Assembly (NCBI GenBank): GCA_030431455.1
Contig: JAUIJE010000009.1
Location: forward strand, 1-64,000
DNA length: 64,000 nucleotides
Reading direction: 5' to 3'
DNA from: a bacterium
Lineage (GTDB): Bacteria; Myxococcota; UBA727; JAUIJE01
Position numbers and translations under genes: made by a program. Within the stretch, counting starts at the first letter, position 1; each line of letters starts with the position of its first letter. Below the pieces are notes generated by a model. That model saw only the letters and a list, made by a program, of their open reading frames with translations. It was not told where the DNA came from and did no database searches. This document shows, in pieces, positions 25,989 to 59,686 of this stretch.

Positions 25989-28900
25989 TCACGGCAACAT
26001 GTTGGGGGCGCCTGGGGTCACCGCACACACCGCCCAGTCGTCGTCGGCCACGTCGGTGTCGTTGCCGTCGGGAAGGCGACAGATCGAGCCCGGCGTCGCG
26101 TTGTTGTCCTCGGCGGTGGCGGGGGTGCCCTCGTGCAGGTCACCGTACACCGACGAGGTCAGCGACCCTTCGTAGGCCAGGGCGTCGAGCACGGTGCCGC
26201 TGCCGTTGTCGTAGAGGACCACGCCGTCCGGGGCGCCGTTTTGCACGTTGTCCTGGGCGCCGGCGAAGGCGATGGTGAGCGCGGTGCCGGGCACGGTGGC
26301 GAGCAGCGTGTTGCTTCCGACGACGAGGAATTGGCCGCTGGCGAGCGAGCCCGCGGGGGCCAACGAAATGTTGTTGTATTCGCTCTGGTTGCTGCCGTTG
26401 ACGAGCACCAGCTGCACATCGGTGAGGTCCACCGGCGCGCCGGTGCCGTTGTAAATCTCGATGAACTCATTGGTGTCCCCGCCCACTTGGTCGTAATCGA
26501 CCTCGTTGATCACCAGGTGTTGGGCCCCTTGCACCAGGAGGACGTCGACGTCGATGGGCGTGCCCGCGGGACCGGCGACCTCAATCGTGCCCACGGTCCC
26601 CGAGAGGGAGCCCGCGGCGAGGCTGAAGGTCGCCGACAGCGCGTCCCCGGCCACCGCGACGGTGGCATCGAGGGTGCCGAGGTCGGGGGTGGACGGGGTG
26701 AGGGTCAACATCATGCCCGCGGCCGGCGCCGGGTGGGTGAAGGTGACGGTGAAGTCTTGGGTGGTGTCGACCAACACGTTCGCCGGGTTGGGGTCGACGG
26801 CGGTGAGCTCGGGGATCGCGGCGGGGTCGAGATTGACCACCTGCGCGGTGACGTCGAGGCCGTCGAGGCTGGCGGTGATGGTGGCGGTCCCGGTCAGCGC
26901 GGTGGTCACGATGTCGATCACCGCTTCTTGGTTGCCGGCGGGGATGACCACCGTGGTCTGCGCGGGGCTGGCCACGGTGTCGTCGTCGGTGGACAGGGTC
27001 ACGGTGGTGTCGTTGCCCGGCTCCCGGGTGAGGCGCAGGGTCAGCGGCGCGCCCAGGGGGGCACCGGTGGTGTCCGGCCGTTGGTAGACCACGCCAGGCA
27101 CGAACGCGTCGAGTTGGGCGTCGCCAAAGGTCACGTAGTCCGCGCCCAACGCTTCGACCTTGAGGTTGCTGTTGCGCCAGGGGAGCGGGCCCGCGATGGC
27201 GTTGAAGTTCTCGCCCACCTGGGGGGCGGGGGTGATGGTGTACAGCAGGTTGTCGACGTGAAAGCCGTTGTCGATGGCGAACTCGCCCGCCCCGGCGTCG
27301 TTGTCCCCGGGGCCCGGATCCGGGGCCGCGTCGGTCACGGCCACGTCCTGAACCTCGACGAACAGCGACTCAAACGGGCTGTCCCCTTGGTCGACCAGGG
27401 CCTGGGTGGCCTCGGCGGGGGTGATCACCCGGGGGTCGAGCGCCGGCCCGGTGCCTTTCACCGCGTAGGTGGCGAAGCCGAGCTGGACCTGGCCGAAGAA
27501 CAGCGACGCGCTGGCCGACACAATGTCAATGCGGTCCCACAAGGCCACGTCGGTGGGCATGTCGTTGGTGTACACGAACACGCCACTGCTCTCGGGCCCG
27601 ATGTAGTCATCCGAGTCCGGGTCCATCTGGGCAAAGAACCCGTTGTAGATGATGCCGGTGACCACGAGGTCGTTCACGCTCACCACCGCCCCGCTGGCGG
27701 CGAAGCTTGGGTCGGTTTTGACGTCGTACACCGTGACCGGGCAGCCCTGGGCGCCGGGGTTGGGGGCGTCGGGACACGCGTCGCAGGCGTTGCCCCGGCC
27801 ATCGCCGTCGTCGTCGGCCTGGTCGACGTTCATGTCGTCGGGGCAGTTGTCGTTGTAGTCGCGCAAGCCATCGCCGTCGGCGTCATAACCGTCGACCGGG
27901 CTGCAGGCGAGGCTGTCCTGGAGGGTGGGGCAGGGGTCGCAGGCATCGCCCACGCCGTCGAGGTCCACGTCGGACTGGCCCATCAAGTTGTCCAGGGGGC
28001 GCCGCGGGTTGAACACCGTCGGGCAGTTGTCGGCCGCGTCTTCGATGCCGTCCCCGTCCATGTCGTTGGCCATGCTCATCCCGTTGTAGTTGTTGGAGCC
28101 GAGCACTTGGTCGCCGGACTCGGTCCGCGCCGGCAAGCAGGTGGGCTCGTCGGTGGGCGTGCCACACGCGAACAGCTCGTAGCCGAACCCTTCACCCGCG
28201 ATGAGCAGGTCGTTCAGGCTCATGCCCGTCTCCCGCTGGGCGCACACCCGTTTGGTGGTGCCGCACACGTCGAGCTCGTCGCAGCCGGCCTCGAGGGCGT
28301 TCACCACCGTGGTGTTGCCGCTCAGGACCTCGCCCCCGCGCAACACGAGCGCCACCTCGGCCTCGGTCGCGTTCAGCACCGCGCGGAAGGGTCCCGCGGC
28401 GTTGGGGGCAAAGATCGCGATGTCGGCCACGTGCCCGGTCTGGAGCAGGCCGATGGCGTCCGCGAGCTCGAGGGTCGCGGCCGAGCCAAACGTGGCCATG
28501 CGCCACAGTTCCTCGTCGGTGAGCACGCCGCCGAAGTTGTTGGTGTTGAGCGCGTCGGCGCAGGCGAGTTCGCGCAGCATGTTCATCGAGCCCGACGGGA
28601 GCCAGTCGGTGCCGAGCCCGATGACCACGCCCGCCGCCTTGTACAGGGGCACGGACGCGGTGTCGCCGTAGAGGGCGACGTTGGAGCGCGGGGACCAGAT
28701 GAGCTTCATGCCCTCGTTGGCCATGGTCTCGACGTCGGGGGGCAAAAGACCGACCCCGTGGATGAGCGCGGTGTTGCCGCCCAGAACGTCCCCGCCGCCG
28801 GGGGCGCCGTTGAGGCACAAGAACTCGTTGCGCGCCTGCAGGTTGATGCCCTCGGCCACGTGGGGGGTATAGGCGTCGACGGTGGGCGCGTTGGGGATGT

Positions 28901-29855
28901 TCGGGTAGCCACAGCCTTGGTCGGGGGTGAACACCTCGCCGCCGTTGTCGCCCAACGGGAACGTATCGTACAGCACGTTGGGCTGGCCCACGTCGGTGGC
29001 GTCGCCCCGGTCGATGTTGCGCATGAAGCCAGGGGCCGAGCCCGAGCCGTTCACCGAGGTCGCGCCGGACAGCACGAAGCGCAGCTCGCCCACCTGCTTT
29101 TCCGGGTTGTCCGCGCCCCCGCCCGGCTCAAAGATCTCCGGGTGGTTGCCGTTGCCCTCGCGCCAGTCGTGGCGGTGCTCCCACCGCAGGGCCGGGCTGA
29201 TGCCCGCGCTGCTCGCGACCCAGGGTTCGCCGTTCATCCAGCCCATGTGGTCGTGGGCGTTGATCAGGCCGGGCGACACCGAGGCCCCCGGGCACAGGAT
29301 CTGGGTCGCGTCCGCGACCCGCGCGTCGTCGTTGCAGGCGCACCCCACACACGCGATCGCCCCGGTGTCGTCGACGAGCACGCCGCCGTCTTCGATGACC
29401 TCTTGCGGCCGGAGCAGATTGCCGGTGATGAAGGTGTAGCCGTTCGTCCCGGTCGACACCGCACACACATCCGCGCCCGGGTCGGTGGCGGGCGCAATCG
29501 CATTGTCACACACGGTGGTGACCACGGTGTCGCCGTCGCCGTCCCCGTCCCCGTCCCCGTCTCCGTCGCCGTCTCCGTCGCCGTCCCCATCTCCGTCGCC
29601 GTCGCCGTCGCCATCTCCGTCTCCGTCGCCGTCCCCATCTCCGTCGCCATCACCGTCGCCGTTGCATCCTGCGGGGTTGTCGCCGCAGTCGACCACCCCG
29701 CCGGTGGTGCACTCGCAGATCTCGCAGCCGTCGTCGCTGGTCGCGGTCTCTCCCACGGCGAGCTCCTCGCCGTACACAAAACAGGGCTGATCGCCGGGGC
29801 AACCCGCCACAAAAAGAACCGCCAAGATGGCCACAAATCCGGTCAGTACACGCAT
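25989..29855 (-). CDS. giant lipoprotein: amidohydrolase with TSP3 repeats and lamin-tail domain
   Basis: A 1288-residue secreted lipoprotein (leader to VAGC, residues 1-19; GGAGG 4 bases before the ATG). Order of parts: a short Cys-rich module; a pure Gly-Asp repeat of about 45 residues; an amidohydrolase/cytosine-deaminase-like domain with metal-site motifs 'NAHDHMG', 'ALIHGVGL' and 'GLGTDWLPSG'; thrombospondin type 3 calcium repeats ('DMDGDGIEDAADNCP', 'DADGDGLRDYNDNCPDD'); strand-rich Ig-like regions; and a C-terminal lamin-tail-like domain ('HLVINEVDYDQVGGDTNEFIEIYNG'). The enzyme probably hydrolyses an imidazolone, amide or similar ring compound outside the cell. The end looks complete. 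Confidence 0.85.
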   Translation of the reverse strand: MRVLTGFVAILAVLFVAGCPGDQPCFVYGEELAVGETATSDDGCEICECTTGGVVDCGDNPAGCNGDGDGDGDGDGDGDGDGDGDGDGDGDGDGDGDGDGDGDGDGDGDTVVTTVCDNAIAPATDPGADVCAVSTGTNGYTFITGNLLRPQEVIEDGGVLVDDTGAIACVGCACNDDARVADATQILCPGASVSPGLINAHDHMGWMNGEPWVASSAGISPALRWEHRHDWREGNGNHPEIFEPGGGADNPEKQVGELRFVLSGATSVNGSGSAPGFMRNIDRGDATDVGQPNVLYDTFPLGDNGGEVFTPDQGCGYPNIPNAPTVDAYTPHVAEGINLQARNEFLCLNGAPGGGDVLGGNTALIHGVGLLPPDVETMANEGMKLIWSPRSNVALYGDTASVPLYKAAGVVIGLGTDWLPSGSMNMLRELACADALNTNNFGGVLTDEELWRMATFGSAATLELADAIGLLQTGHVADIAIFAPNAAGPFRAVLNATEAEVALVLRGGEVLSGNTTVVNALEAGCDELDVCGTTKRVCAQRETGMSLNDLLIAGEGFGYELFACGTPTDEPTCLPARTESGDQVLGSNNYNGMSMANDMDGDGIEDAADNCPTVFNPRRPLDNLMGQSDVDLDGVGDACDPCPTLQDSLACSPVDGYDADGDGLRDYNDNCPDDMNVDQADDDGDGRGNACDACPDAPNPGAQGCPVTVYDVKTDPSFAASGAVVSVNDLVVTGIIYNGFFAQMDPDSDDYIGPESSGVFVYTNDMPTDVALWDRIDIVSASASLFFGQVQLGFATYAVKGTGPALDPRVITPAEATQALVDQGDSPFESLFVEVQDVAVTDAAPDPGPGDNDAGAGEFAIDNGFHVDNLLYTITPAPQVGENFNAIAGPLPWRNSNLKVEALGADYVTFGDAQLDAFVPGVVYQRPDTTGAPLGAPLTLRLTREPGNDTTVTLSTDDDTVASPAQTTVVIPAGNQEAVIDIVTTALTGTATITASLDGLDVTAQVVNLDPAAIPELTAVDPNPANVLVDTTQDFTVTFTHPAPAAGMMLTLTPSTPDLGTLDATVAVAGDALSATFSLAAGSLSGTVGTIEVAGPAGTPIDVDVLLVQGAQHLVINEVDYDQVGGDTNEFIEIYNGTGAPVDLTDVQLVLVNGSNQSEYNNISLAPAGSLASGQFLVVGSNTLLATVPGTALTIAFAGAQDNVQNGAPDGVVLYDNGSGTVLDALAYEGSLTSSVYGDLHEGTPATAEDNNATPGSICRLPDGNDTDVADDDWAVCAVTPGAPNMLP
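29529..29667. repeat. microsatellite encoding poly(Gly-Asp)
   Basis: About 23 copies of a 6-bp unit (GTCGCC/GTCCCC/ATCTCC variants on the plus strand), coding on the minus strand for alternating Gly and Asp. Several copies differ at the third base, so it is old enough to have drifted but is still prone to slippage in whole codon pairs. It joins the Cys-rich module to the amidohydrolase domain. Confidence 0.9.
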
Positions 29856-37110: not shown

Positions 37111-39111
37111 ATGACCGTATCCATCAAAGACGCCGGCTTGCGGCGCGCCTTCGAGGGCATGCTCAACGACAATCGGCTGACCAAAGCCGAGGTCCAGACC
37201 CTCATCGATTCCACCGCCGACGGGGCCGGTCTGGCCAAGACCGAAAAGGCCGACCTGAAGCGCATCCTCGACAAGGTCGGGGACACCTTCGACGCCGACG
37301 CCAAGGCGCTCATCTCGGATTTCCTCGGGCTCGACGGCAGCACCGTCGGCGAGGTCACCATCCGGGTCAGCGACCGGGTGACCACCGTGGCCAAGCTCGA
37401 CGATCTCGCGTCCACCTTCGCGGCGGAAATCGGCGCCCGGGCGAGCGAGTTCACGTCGCCCGAAGACGCGTTCAAGCTGTTCGCCGAGTACGGCGGGCGC
37501 CTCAAGGCGTTGGCCAAAGACGCCAGCGATCCGCGCGACGTCGACACCGCGGCGGAGGCCCTGCTCGCGGCGGGGCGCAACAGCGCTGCGGCCGGGTTTG
37601 ATCAAAAGGACCTCGACCACGACACCATCAGCGACCTCGCCGAGGCGGCGCGCGGCCGGGACCCGGCGGCGTTCGACAAGCGCGATGAAGAAGTGGGCAA
37701 AGTCTGGACCACGACCTACTGGCCGATGGCCGGCAGCGGCGACAACGATCAAGAGGGCAGCGCGGGCAGCAACCTGTGGGCCAAAAAAGGCCCGCTGGCC
37801 AAGCTCGACCAACTCCTCGGGGCGCGGGGCATGGATGCCCAAGCCAAAGCATTGGAGTTCGAGCGGAAGGCCGCGCTCGGGTGGCTCGTGGGCGACCGCG
37901 ACACCGGCCACATGATCAACAACAGCTCGCTCAAAGAGAGCGACGCGGAGATGAGCACCGGGGTCGACTTCGACGGGGACGGCAAAATCACGTCGGGGGT
38001 GAAGGTCGATTTCTTGGCCAACGACCAGTTCGCGTCGGTGCGGTCCCGCAGCGCGTTGGTGCCGAAGGCGACCATCGACGGCGACGTGGTCGAGGTGCGC
38101 CGCGAGCGCGTCACCGACGACGCGGGTGCGATCTCGTTCAAGTTCTTCCGCCAGGACTCGGGGGCCGAGCTCACCGCCGCCGAGTTGAACACGATGTTCT
38201 ACGCCAACCCGGTCAGCGGTGACGGCGACACCTCGGACACCATGAGCGTGGGCTGGTGGGGCAGCTGCGACAAGGTCGCCCTGGCCGGGATTCTGTTCAA
38301 AGAGCCGATCAAGGATTCGGTGACCATCGACGGCGTGACCTTCACCAAGCAGGACATGCTCGGGCTGCTCACCGTCATCGCCGACAGCCAAGCCAGCGGC
38401 ACCGACTTCATCGGCAACCGCTACGACAAGAACCCCGACATCCTGGTCAAGAAGGACGGCACCCAGCTCAACGGCAAGTTCGTGGGCCTCGACGACGAGA
38501 CCTTCCGCGGGGGCGAGGGCATGTGGCGCACCCAAGGGGACGTCATGGTGCTCACCGACCCGTTCAAGGGGGACCCGGACAAAGAAGTGGTGTTCAAAGC
38601 GCTCGACGGCACCGAGCACAAGCTCAAGGCCAAAGACATCAAACACGTCGCGCGCGAGGACAAAAAGGACATGGACGCGGCCGCGTTCCACACCACGATG
38701 TTGTCGTGGCTGTCCGATGGCCGGGCCGCGGCCATGGACCGCGACTCCGGCGATCACGTGTGGAACTACAACTTCCACGGCGCCACCCTGAAGAGCGCCA
38801 ACGAGCTCACCGGGGACGCGCGGCCGGACAACGCCGGGCACAACGGCCCGGTGGCCGACGACACCACCGTGGTCGCGTACGAGATGGACGTGCGCTTCGG
38901 CGAGTCGGACTGGCCCCGCGAGTACAGCTACTGGCTGGAGATGGACAAGACCGGCAAGGTCATCAACTCGGGTTGGACGTCGGACAACCCCGATTTCCTC
39001 TGGCGCCCCAGCGACTTCAAGAACTTCACCGGCGCCAACCCGCGCAACCCGTTCGTGAAGCCGGAGCTGGTCAAAGAAATCTACGACGCGTTCATGGCCC
39101 AAGACGGCTGA
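37111..39111 (+). CDS. transglutaminase-elicitor-type protein with Pep-13-like motif
   Basis: A 666-residue protein resembling the transglutaminase-elicitor (GP42) family of Phytophthora, which has relatives in some bacteria. A probable catalytic Cys386 lies in 'GWWGSCDKVAL'. Residues 549-562 read H-V-W-N-Y-N-F-H-G-A-T-L-K-S, lining up with the Pep-13 elicitor V-W-N-Q-P-V-R-G-F-K-V-Y-E at V, W, N and G. An EF-hand-like loop D-F-D-G-D-G-K-I-T (from 286) may bind calcium. The first 180 residues are helical and repeat-like. There is no signal peptide, so export, if any, is not by Sec. The ATG at 37111 is preferred over GTG 37102. A terminator follows 22 bp after the stop. Confidence 0.7.
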   Translation: MTVSIKDAGLRRAFEGMLNDNRLTKAEVQTLIDSTADGAGLAKTEKADLKRILDKVGDTFDADAKALISDFLGLDGSTVGEVTIRVSDRVTTVAKLDDLASTFAAEIGARASEFTSPEDAFKLFAEYGGRLKALAKDASDPRDVDTAAEALLAAGRNSAAAGFDQKDLDHDTISDLAEAARGRDPAAFDKRDEEVGKVWTTTYWPMAGSGDNDQEGSAGSNLWAKKGPLAKLDQLLGARGMDAQAKALEFERKAALGWLVGDRDTGHMINNSSLKESDAEMSTGVDFDGDGKITSGVKVDFLANDQFASVRSRSALVPKATIDGDVVEVRRERVTDDAGAISFKFFRQDSGAELTAAELNTMFYANPVSGDGDTSDTMSVGWWGSCDKVALAGILFKEPIKDSVTIDGVTFTKQDMLGLLTVIADSQASGTDFIGNRYDKNPDILVKKDGTQLNGKFVGLDDETFRGGEGMWRTQGDVMVLTDPFKGDPDKEVVFKALDGTEHKLKAKDIKHVAREDKKDMDAAAFHTTMLSWLSDGRAAAMDRDSGDHVWNYNFHGATLKSANELTGDARPDNAGHNGPVADDTTVVAYEMDVRFGESDWPREYSYWLEMDKTGKVINSGWTSDNPDFLWRPSDFKNFTGANPRNPFVKPELVKEIYDAFMAQDG

Positions 39112-39132: not shown

Positions 39133-39164
39133 AAGAGCCCCCGCCCCGCGGGGGCTTTTGTTTG
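39133..39164. terminator. bidirectional terminator
   Basis: Stem AAGAGCCCCCGC / GCGGGGGCTTTT with loop CCC, then TTTGTTTG. It lies between the convergent ends of the transglutaminase gene (39111) and the phosphatase gene (39178). Confidence 0.9.
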
Positions 39165-58621: not shown

Positions 58622-59686
58622 GTGGGCGACGGCGGGACAGGCGAAAAAACCGAAGAGCCCACCCCGCAGAAGCTGCGGCAGGCCCGTGAGAAGGGCAACG
58701 TCGCCAAGAGCCAGGACATCATCCAATCCGCGGGCTTCGCGGGCGTGTTCGCGGTGCTCGGATTGACCCTGGCCGGGCTCGGCCAGACGATGATGGACTT
58801 TTACATCTCGGCGTTCGAGGCCGCGACCCGCAAGGGCGACCTGCCGACGGTGGTGAAGATCACCGAGGACGCGGTGTGGTTCATCGTGCAGAACACGATG
58901 CCGGTGCTGGGGGCGGCGTTTTTGTTTGCCGCCGCGGGCAACTACGCCCAGGTCGGCTTCCTGTTCACCGTGCACCCGCTCAAGCCCGACGTGAAAAAGC
59001 TCAACCCCATCTCGGGGATCAAGCAGCTGTTCAGCAAAAAGAAGCTCGTGGAGCTGCTCAAGCAGTTCGTGAAGTTCGGGCTGGTCAGCTACGTGACGTA
59101 CGGGGCGATCGAGTCGTCGGTCCGGGACGTGATCCTGGCGGCGCGGCTGGACATGATGGCGGCCATCCAGGTCGGCAGCGAAATTTTATATAATATTTCC
59201 GTACGGGTCGCGTTCTTGTTCTTCGTGGTCGGGGTCGCCGATTTCTTCTGGCAAAGGCACGCCCACAAAAAAGATATGATGATGTCGAAGTACGACGTCA
59301 AACAGGAATACAAGCAGTCCGAAGGGGACCCGCAACAAAAAGCTGAGCGCAAGGCCCTGGCCGAAGAGCTCATCATGCACGGGAGTCAACAAAACGTGTC
59401 CAACGCCGACGCTGTGATCACCAACCCCGCGCACATTGCGGTGGCGATCAAATACGAAAAAGAGAAGGGCGGCGCCCCGCGCGTGGTGGCCAAAGGCCTC
59501 CGCAAGAACGCCGACAAGATCAAAGACATCGCCCGCGAGGCCGGTGTGCCCATCCTGCGCAACGTCCCGCTGGCCCAGGCGCTCAACAAGCTCGACCTCG
59601 ACGAAGAGATCCCCGAGGAGCTGTTCGAGGCCGTGGCCGAGGTGCTCAACTTCGTCTACGAACTCAAGGAACAAGGAAAAGTATAG
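58622..59686 (+). CDS. SctU/FlhB-type type III export switch protein
   Basis: A 354-residue member of the FlhB/YscU family, the autocleaving specificity switch of type III export. It has the N-terminal 'EKTEEPTPQKLRQAREKGNVAKSQD', four hydrophobic segments (about residues 36-60, 90-115, 140-165 and 190-215), the linker 'KKDMMMSKYDVKQEYKQSEGDP' and the cytoplasmic domain with N268-P-A-H271 in 'VITNPAHIAVAIKYEKEKGG'. The canonical sequence is NPTH; here Thr is Ala. The C-terminal 'GVPILRNVPLAQALNKLD' and 'EIPEELFEAVAEVLNFVYEL' match the family. GTG 58622 with GAGG 6 bases upstream. No other export-apparatus gene is within the window. Confidence 0.92.
   Translation: MGDGGTGEKTEEPTPQKLRQAREKGNVAKSQDIIQSAGFAGVFAVLGLTLAGLGQTMMDFYISAFEAATRKGDLPTVVKITEDAVWFIVQNTMPVLGAAFLFAAAGNYAQVGFLFTVHPLKPDVKKLNPISGIKQLFSKKKLVELLKQFVKFGLVSYVTYGAIESSVRDVILAARLDMMAAIQVGSEILYNISVRVAFLFFVVGVADFFWQRHAHKKDMMMSKYDVKQEYKQSEGDPQQKAERKALAEELIMHGSQQNVSNADAVITNPAHIAVAIKYEKEKGGAPRVVAKGLRKNADKIKDIAREAGVPILRNVPLAQALNKLDLDEEIPEELFEAVAEVLNFVYELKEQGKV

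What the first reader, a model, noticed from the sequence alone, without database searches (positions are those of the whole stretch)
37111..39111. Bacterial transglutaminase with a Pep-13-like elicitor motif
H-V-W-N-Y-N-F-H-G-A-T-L-K-S (residues 549-562) aligns with the plant-immunity elicitor Pep-13 of Phytophthora GP42 transglutaminase at V, W, N and G, and a WWGSC motif (Cys386) fits a papain/transglutaminase nucleophile. Pep-13 activity in plants is known to depend on Trp and Pro; the Pro is absent here, so recognition is doubtful, but the enzyme fold seems shared. No signal peptide is present, and an SctU-type protein is encoded 20 kb away, so non-Sec export is conceivable.
Basis: partly seen in the sequence, partly recalled or inferred. 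Interest (0 to 1): 0.6.

Follow-up and report, generated by a model that had tools for sequence, protein, structure and literature searches.

The report
Tagged bacterial cousin of GP42 transglutaminase
This bacterial gene encodes a distant but real relative of the Phytophthora enzyme GP42, with an apparently rearranged active site and, in place of the usual secretion signal, a small unnamed front module that it shares with many other, mostly cysteine-based, enzymes in the same bacterial phylum.

Summary
The open reading frame is real (window 37111-39111, +, 666 aa). It passes the curated Pfam TGase_elicitor cut-off. Its AlphaFold model (mean pLDDT 87) has one significant solved match, Phytophthora GP42, PDB 3tw5 (E 6.5e-10).

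Three findings go further. (1) The GP42 'Cys-His' motif is Cys-Asp here. In this clade a His sits just before the Pep-13-equivalent V-W-N (HVWN in 29 of 34 Cys-Asp proteins; EVWN or QVWN in all 26 Cys-His proteins). I infer that the catalytic histidine moved to the usual papain strand; this is one event on the tree. (2) The first 70 residues form an unnamed module that recurs in 44 of 193 Myxococcota genomes, up to 13 matches each, in front of calpain-like, pyroglutamyl-peptidase-like, TGase and other enzymes. It never co-occurs with a signal peptide. (3) The same genome holds a lipoprotein-type GP42 homologue with Cys-His and an intact VWNQP core.

An address or export role for the module is likely but unproven. 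T6SS and eCIS are disfavoured as exporters; T3SS is undecided. Plant elicitor activity is unlikely.

The parts
37111..39111 (+). Gene for the 666-aa leaderless TGase_elicitor-family protein (P0001)
   Evidence: Open frame, RBS, codon score, Pfam PF16683, AlphaFold model and Foldseek hit to 3tw5
37111..37335 (+). Unnamed N-terminal module (residues 1-75; four helices 8-20, 25-35, 43-59, 62-71), shared with many other proteins
   Evidence: Profile A2/A7; 13 matches in own genome, present in 44 of 193 Myxococcota genomes; no PDB fold match
37609..37644 (+). DxDxDT..D..E acidic motif (residues 167-178), probable Ca2+-binding TSP3-like repeat
   Evidence: Near-invariant D167, D169, D171, D175, E178; relatives L009-L011 show duplicated D.D.DGL.D..E units
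37963..37983 (+). VDFDGDG acidic loop (residues 285-291 = DxDxDG), probable Ca2+ site
   Evidence: E280, T283, D286 in all 33 rows of A3, G291 nearly so; D290 and G289 invariant in A1
38254..38274 (+). W382-W-G-S-C386-D387-K388: nucleophile at helix N-terminus with the Cys-Asp variant of the GP42 Cys-His motif
   Evidence: C386 34/34, D387 33/34; C386 opens helix 386-395; aligned to GP42 Cys-His
38755..38772 (+). H549-V-W-N-Y-N554: strand homologous to Pep-13; H549 is the proposed relocated catalytic His, N552 the conserved strand Asn
   Evidence: H549 29/33, W551 and N552 33/33; strand 552-566 in the model; coupling table
38992..39009 (+). D-F-L-W-R-P motif (residues 628-633), conserved with GP42 HPDFLWLP
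   Evidence: D628 and W631 33/33; phmmer, profile and hhalign alignments to GP42
39136..39160 (+). Intrinsic-terminator-like GC hairpin plus T run between convergent genes
   Evidence: Sequence read directly

Best explanation
The gene encodes a leaderless, probably Ca2+-dependent papain-fold acyltransferase of the GP42 (TGase_elicitor) family. Cys386, at the start of the core helix, would attack a protein glutamine. The base would be His549, at the start of the strand that corresponds to Pep-13; it would replace the His that directly follows Cys in GP42, where this clade carries Asp387. The acyl-enzyme would then be resolved by a lysine (cross-link) or by water (deamidation). The 70-residue N-terminal module is a separate unit that takes the place of a Sec signal and most likely serves as an address label that brings diverse, mostly cysteine-based enzymes to a common place, probably out of the cell during predation or competition. 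Shown: family, fold, nucleophile position, the His/Asp exchange pattern, and sharing of the module. Inferred: His549 as base, Ca2+ use, transglutaminase chemistry, export, and target.
For: Pfam over cut-off; Foldseek 3tw5 E 6.5e-10, prob 1.00; helix-capping Cys; hhalign 99.5%, E 2.2e-22 to the Cys-His branch. PMC10318531 states that GP42 lacks His at the canonical position and uses the His after Cys, and that canonical His lies on strand 2. Here Cys-His goes with E/QVWNQP in 26/26 and Cys-Asp with HVWN in 29/34; H549 stays where H527 is lost. Module and signal peptide are mutually exclusive in this family: 36 module proteins with 0 signals, 26 signal proteins with 0 modules by a hydropathy rule, and none of 64 module proteins has a hydrophobic N-terminus. 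The module starts within residue 25 in 61 of 64 proteins and fronts C2, C15, TGase, PLD and GH..C proteins.
Against: No coordinates could be inspected, so the Cys386-His549 distance is unmeasured. The Cys-Asp/His change is a single event on the tree, so the coupling is not statistically independent. Four copies in one genome (G001) lack both candidate His and may be inactive, or show that neither is needed. No export machinery was tied to the module: T6SS and eCIS are nearly exclusive of it, and two module-rich genomes give no SctV match. A cytoplasmic role is not excluded.
Confidence: 0.55

Rival explanations
1. The protein stays in the cytoplasm: the module is a scaffold or inhibitory interaction domain (TerB/EF-hand-like pair) that regulates several housekeeping or developmental cysteine enzymes, for instance in spore or envelope cross-linking.
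For: No signal peptide and no exporter linkage; weak sub-threshold DUF533 and TerB matches in a few module proteins; module sometimes in two or three tandem copies.
Against: Cargo includes P-domain and Ca2+-motif proteins typical of secreted enzymes; in the Cys-His branch close relatives are lipoproteins or secreted, and the two that carry the module have no signal.
Confidence: 0.25
2. The protein is a plant-interacting elicitor-type transglutaminase recognised through its Pep-13-like strand.
For: Homologous strand with W551 retained.
Confidence: 0.03
3. The fold is kept but the enzyme is not a transglutaminase: with Cys-Asp plus strand His it is a canonical papain-like protease or deamidase.
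For: His on strand 2 is the ordinary papain arrangement; most other named cargo of the module are cysteine peptidases.
Against: Nearest solved relative is a transglutaminase; conserved aromatic positions around Cys and the VWN strand are shared with GP42.
Confidence: 0.3
4. The module is a type III export signal read by the SctU/SctV apparatus encoded in the genome.
For: sctU in the window and a T3SS-type sctV at C25; M. xanthus uses a needleless T3SS whose effectors are still only proposed (PMC12075869).
Against: Both genes are orphans here; module-rich G025 and G032 show no SctV-family match; several large-genome f13 genera keep SctV without the module.
Confidence: 0.12

Closest known systems
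GP42 transglutaminase of Phytophthora sojae (PDB 3tw5; Pfam PF16683)
   Same: Fold, helix-capping Cys, V-W-N strand, conserved DFLW region
   Different: Cys-Asp instead of Cys-His, His before V-W-N, Gln-Pro of Pep-13 lost, leaderless, extra N-terminal module and middle domain, 13% identity over the structural match
Secreted or lipoprotein TGase_elicitor proteins of Myxococcota (own genome C28:533490-534842, L034/L054)
   Same: Same family, same genome
   Different: Lipoprotein signal, Cys-His, intact VWNQPLRGY, PPC and lamin-tail domains, no module
Papain-like enzymes with canonical Cys-His (PMC10318531)
   Same: His on strand 2, Cys at helix start (inferred for this protein)
   Different: Belongs by sequence and fold to the GP42 branch; catalysis untested
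Streptomyces mobaraense microbial transglutaminase
   Same: Also a papain-like transglutaminase with rearranged His and Asp (PMC10318531)
   Different: No sequence or structure match was found; the swap there is between His and Asp of the triad, not the residue after Cys
Calpain-like (C2), pyroglutamyl-peptidase-like (C15) and GH..C proteins of Myxococcota carrying the same module
   Same: Same N-terminal module, no signal peptide
   Different: Unrelated catalytic domains

Membership tests
Pfam PF16683 TGase_elicitor | Score above curated gathering cut-off | tested here: met
   44.3 bits against 25
Pfam PF16683 TGase_elicitor | GP42 fold | tested here: met
   AlphaFold pLDDT 87.3; Foldseek 3tw5 E 6.5e-10, prob 1.00, TM 0.62 by target length
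GP42-type transglutaminase | Nucleophilic Cys at N-terminus of core helix | tested here: met
   C386 opens helix 386-395 and is 34/34 conserved
GP42-type transglutaminase | 'CH' motif: catalytic His directly after Cys | tested here: not met
   D387 here; Asp in 33 of 34 rows of A3, Asn in one
GP42-type transglutaminase | Ca2+-dependent glutamine-lysine cross-linking | not testable with these tools
   Only acidic DxDxDG/T motifs seen
Pep-13 elicitor | V-W-N core including the Trp | tested here: met
   V550-W551-N552 aligned by hhalign
Pep-13 elicitor | Gln-Pro after V-W-N | tested here: not met
   Y553-N554 here; no Cys-Asp protein has QP
Papain-like enzyme with canonical dyad | His on strand 2 facing Cys | tested here: inconclusive
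   H549 lies just before the modelled strand 552-566 and is 29/33 conserved; coordinates not available
T6SS or eCIS effector | Occurs together with the secretion machine | tested here: not met
   Own genome lacks both; overlap 2/44 and 3/44 module genomes, 0/21 module-rich
T3SS effector | Occurs together with and is exported by the T3SS | tested here: inconclusive
   SctV-family proteins widespread in the phylum, no match in G025 and G032; export not testable
TerB/DUF533-like domain | Score above Pfam cut-off for the N-terminal module | tested here: not met
   Best 27.3 bits against 29.6 (DUF533) and 16.9 against 24.4 (TerB), in other module proteins, none in P0001

The most novel reading that the evidence does not exclude
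The N-terminal module is a previously unnamed address label for a leaderless export route in Myxococcota, carrying a whole class of cysteine-nucleophile enzymes to prey or surface, and its transglutaminase cargo has the catalytic histidine of GP42 relocated to the canonical papain strand, at the head of the Pep-13 segment.
Probability: 0.3. Interest if true: 0.8.

Novelty: new variant of a known kind. Interest (0 to 1): 0.58.

Why it matters
A 2016 review, citing Reiss 2011, says GP42 homologues occur only in oomycetes and some marine Vibrio (PMC4915311). Here the Pfam family is found in 50 of 195 Myxococcota genomes, in a secreted Cys-His branch and a leaderless Cys-Asp branch. The second branch offers a natural experiment on how a papain-like active site can relocate its histidine, and suggests why the Pep-13 strand is kept by the enzyme. 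The shared module gives a testable handle on which leaderless proteins Myxococcota may export; the effectors of the myxobacterial contact-dependent killing machine are still described as potential (PMC12075869).

Tried and rejected
eCIS export: Pvc16_N (PF14065) is absent from this genome and shared with only 3 of 44 module genomes, none module-rich. T6SS: VipB (PF05943) absent here, 2 of 44. T3SS as explanation from the nearby sctU: sctU and sctV are orphans, and the only clustered set seen is flagellar. Adjacent immunity gene: neighbours are UPF0158 and a phosphodiesterase in other orientations; the one recurrent neighbour, in 11 loci, resembles an ADP-ribosylglycohydrolase by eye and is confined to loci from one set of close relatives. 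Viral or plasmid origin: no BFVD structural match and no plasmid tblastn hit. H527 as the relocated His: lost in L060-L062 while H549 stays, and it aligns with a His also present in GP42. Fold of the module: no PDB match, modest model of 71 pLDDT. GH..C cargo family: invariant His and Cys, but no PDB relative by sequence, so caspase-like is only a guess. The Reiss 2011 paper itself is not held; its active-site statement is taken from PMC10318531.

Full report
THE OBSERVATION. The frame at 37111-39111 (+) is a genuine gene: 666 codons, a ribosome-binding site (GAGGTGA) before ATG 37111, best codon score in its region, and a GC hairpin with a T run after the stop. Pfam TGase_elicitor matches with 44.3 bits against a curated cut-off of 25, and the only PDB sequence relative is GP42, 3tw5 (9.9e-13 with a profile). 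An AlphaFold model built on the window protein and 33 relatives from public genomes has mean pLDDT 87.3, and its only significant PDB match is 3tw5 (E 6.5e-10, probability 1.00, TM 0.62 by target length). C386 is the first residue of a helix, as in papain-like enzymes.

THE ACTIVE SITE DIFFERS FROM GP42. According to PMC10318531, GP42 lacks the histidine at the usual papain position (strand 2) and instead uses the His that directly follows Cys, the 'CH' motif. In the window protein that residue is Asp387; in the 34-row alignment it is Asp in 33 and Asn in one. A profile-profile alignment to 26 proteins of the secreted branch (99.5%, E 2.2e-22) places D387 on that His, V550-W551-N552 on the V-W-N of Pep-13, and H549 on the Glu or Gln just before it. 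Across the proteins collected, Cys-His goes with E/QVWNQP in 26 of 26, and Cys-Asp goes with HVWN in 29 of 34. Of the five exceptions, four are copies in one genome (G001) that also lack the second candidate His (H527); the fifth is L015. Where H527 is lost in L060-L062, H549 stays. I therefore infer that the catalytic His sits at 549, at the head of the strand that corresponds to Pep-13. The Cys-Asp proteins fall on one side of a branch, so this is one evolutionary event; the coupling is suggestive, not statistically independent. I could not open the model coordinates to measure the distance.

THE PEP-13 QUESTION. V, W and N of the strand are homologous and almost invariant in this clade; Gln-Pro is gone. 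G557 coincides but is not conserved. The genome has a second gene, C28:533490-534842, whose product is a lipoprotein with Cys-His and the segment VWNQPLRGY. If any protein of this organism could resemble Pep-13 to a plant, it is that one. Pfam finds the family in 50 of 195 Myxococcota genomes, whereas a 2016 review citing Reiss 2011 says homologues occur only in oomycetes and some marine Vibrio (PMC4915311).

A SHARED N-TERMINAL MODULE. Residues 1-75 form four predicted helices and match no Pfam family in this protein. A profile of this module finds 13 matches in the same genome and matches in 44 of 193 Myxococcota genomes, often 5-11 per genome. In 61 of 64 proteins fetched the module starts within the first 25 residues, and none has a hydrophobic N-terminus. 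Partners include calpain-like C2 peptidases (13 of 68), pyroglutamyl-peptidase-like C15 proteins (5), TGases, a family with invariant GH and Cys (19-20), a PLD-like enzyme, P-domain and BRCT proteins. Within the TGase set, the module and a signal peptide exclude each other: 36 proteins with module and no signal, 26 with signal and no module. Two Cys-His proteins (L107, L152) acquired the module separately and have no signal either. This makes an address or export role the best guess, but it is a guess. The signal-peptide call was a simple hydropathy rule, which misses some clear lipoproteins such as the one in this genome.

WHICH EXPORTER? The window does encode one (58622-59686), and a T3SS-type SctV is at C25, but both stand alone, and the clustered export genes at C18 look like a flagellar operon by eye. 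SctV-family proteins occur in most of the phylum, so co-occurrence says little; module-rich G025 (92% complete) and G032 (82%) give no match. T6SS and eCIS markers are absent here and nearly exclusive of the module. Much of that exclusion may reflect shared ancestry, as the genera concerned differ. The exporter, if there is one, is unidentified.

FUNCTION. The best-supported reading is a leaderless, probably Ca2+-dependent papain-fold acyltransferase. DxDxDG and DxDxDT acidic motifs are conserved, and GP42 is Ca2+-dependent (PMC9879208). Cross-linking, deamidation or proteolysis cannot be told apart from sequence. The gene stands alone between oppositely oriented neighbours, without an obvious immunity partner. 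Predation or competition is plausible for Myxococcota but untested here.

NOVELTY. The enzyme is a new variant of a known kind. The module may be the more important find, if its role is confirmed.

Noticed in passing
G000:C28:533490-534842 (L034, L054:6344-8809): Second TGase_elicitor gene of the same genome: lipoprotein with Cys-His, VWNQPLRGY, PPC and lamin-tail domains; the closest Pep-13-like segment in this organism.
   Followed up: partly
L067, L068 (G001 contigs C4 and C34): Four TGase copies in two neighbouring pairs in one genome all lack both candidate His residues (527 and 549) but keep Cys-Asp; possible pseudoenzymes.
   Followed up: partly
L117, L120, L121, L126, L127, L129 and others (alignment A6); own genome L050:4334-7045: Unnamed family behind the module with invariant GH and a downstream Cys (H546, C574 of the first row); caspase-like by appearance, no Pfam or PDB match.
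   Followed up: partly
window 58622-59686 and G000:C25:126659-128686: sctU and sctV each stand alone, away from the flagellar-looking operon at C18; a scattered type III set.
   Followed up: partly
L048:5814-6347, L049:5918-6322, L051:5597-6214: Small own-genome proteins made of the module, a conserved WS.T..VHLP..D segment and a Gly/Ser- or Pro-rich tail.
   Followed up: no
window 25989-29834; also L047, L050, L052, L055: Many surface-type proteins carry long (GD)n linkers.
   Followed up: no
L069, L070, L071, L073-L078, L082, L085: A divergent ADP-ribosylglycohydrolase-like gene sits directly upstream of the TGase gene in most of 11 related loci.
   Followed up: no
L083 (Planctomycetota MAG): A Cys-Asn/HVWN member with the module outside Myxococcota by record title; transfer or binning error not tested.
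   Followed up: no
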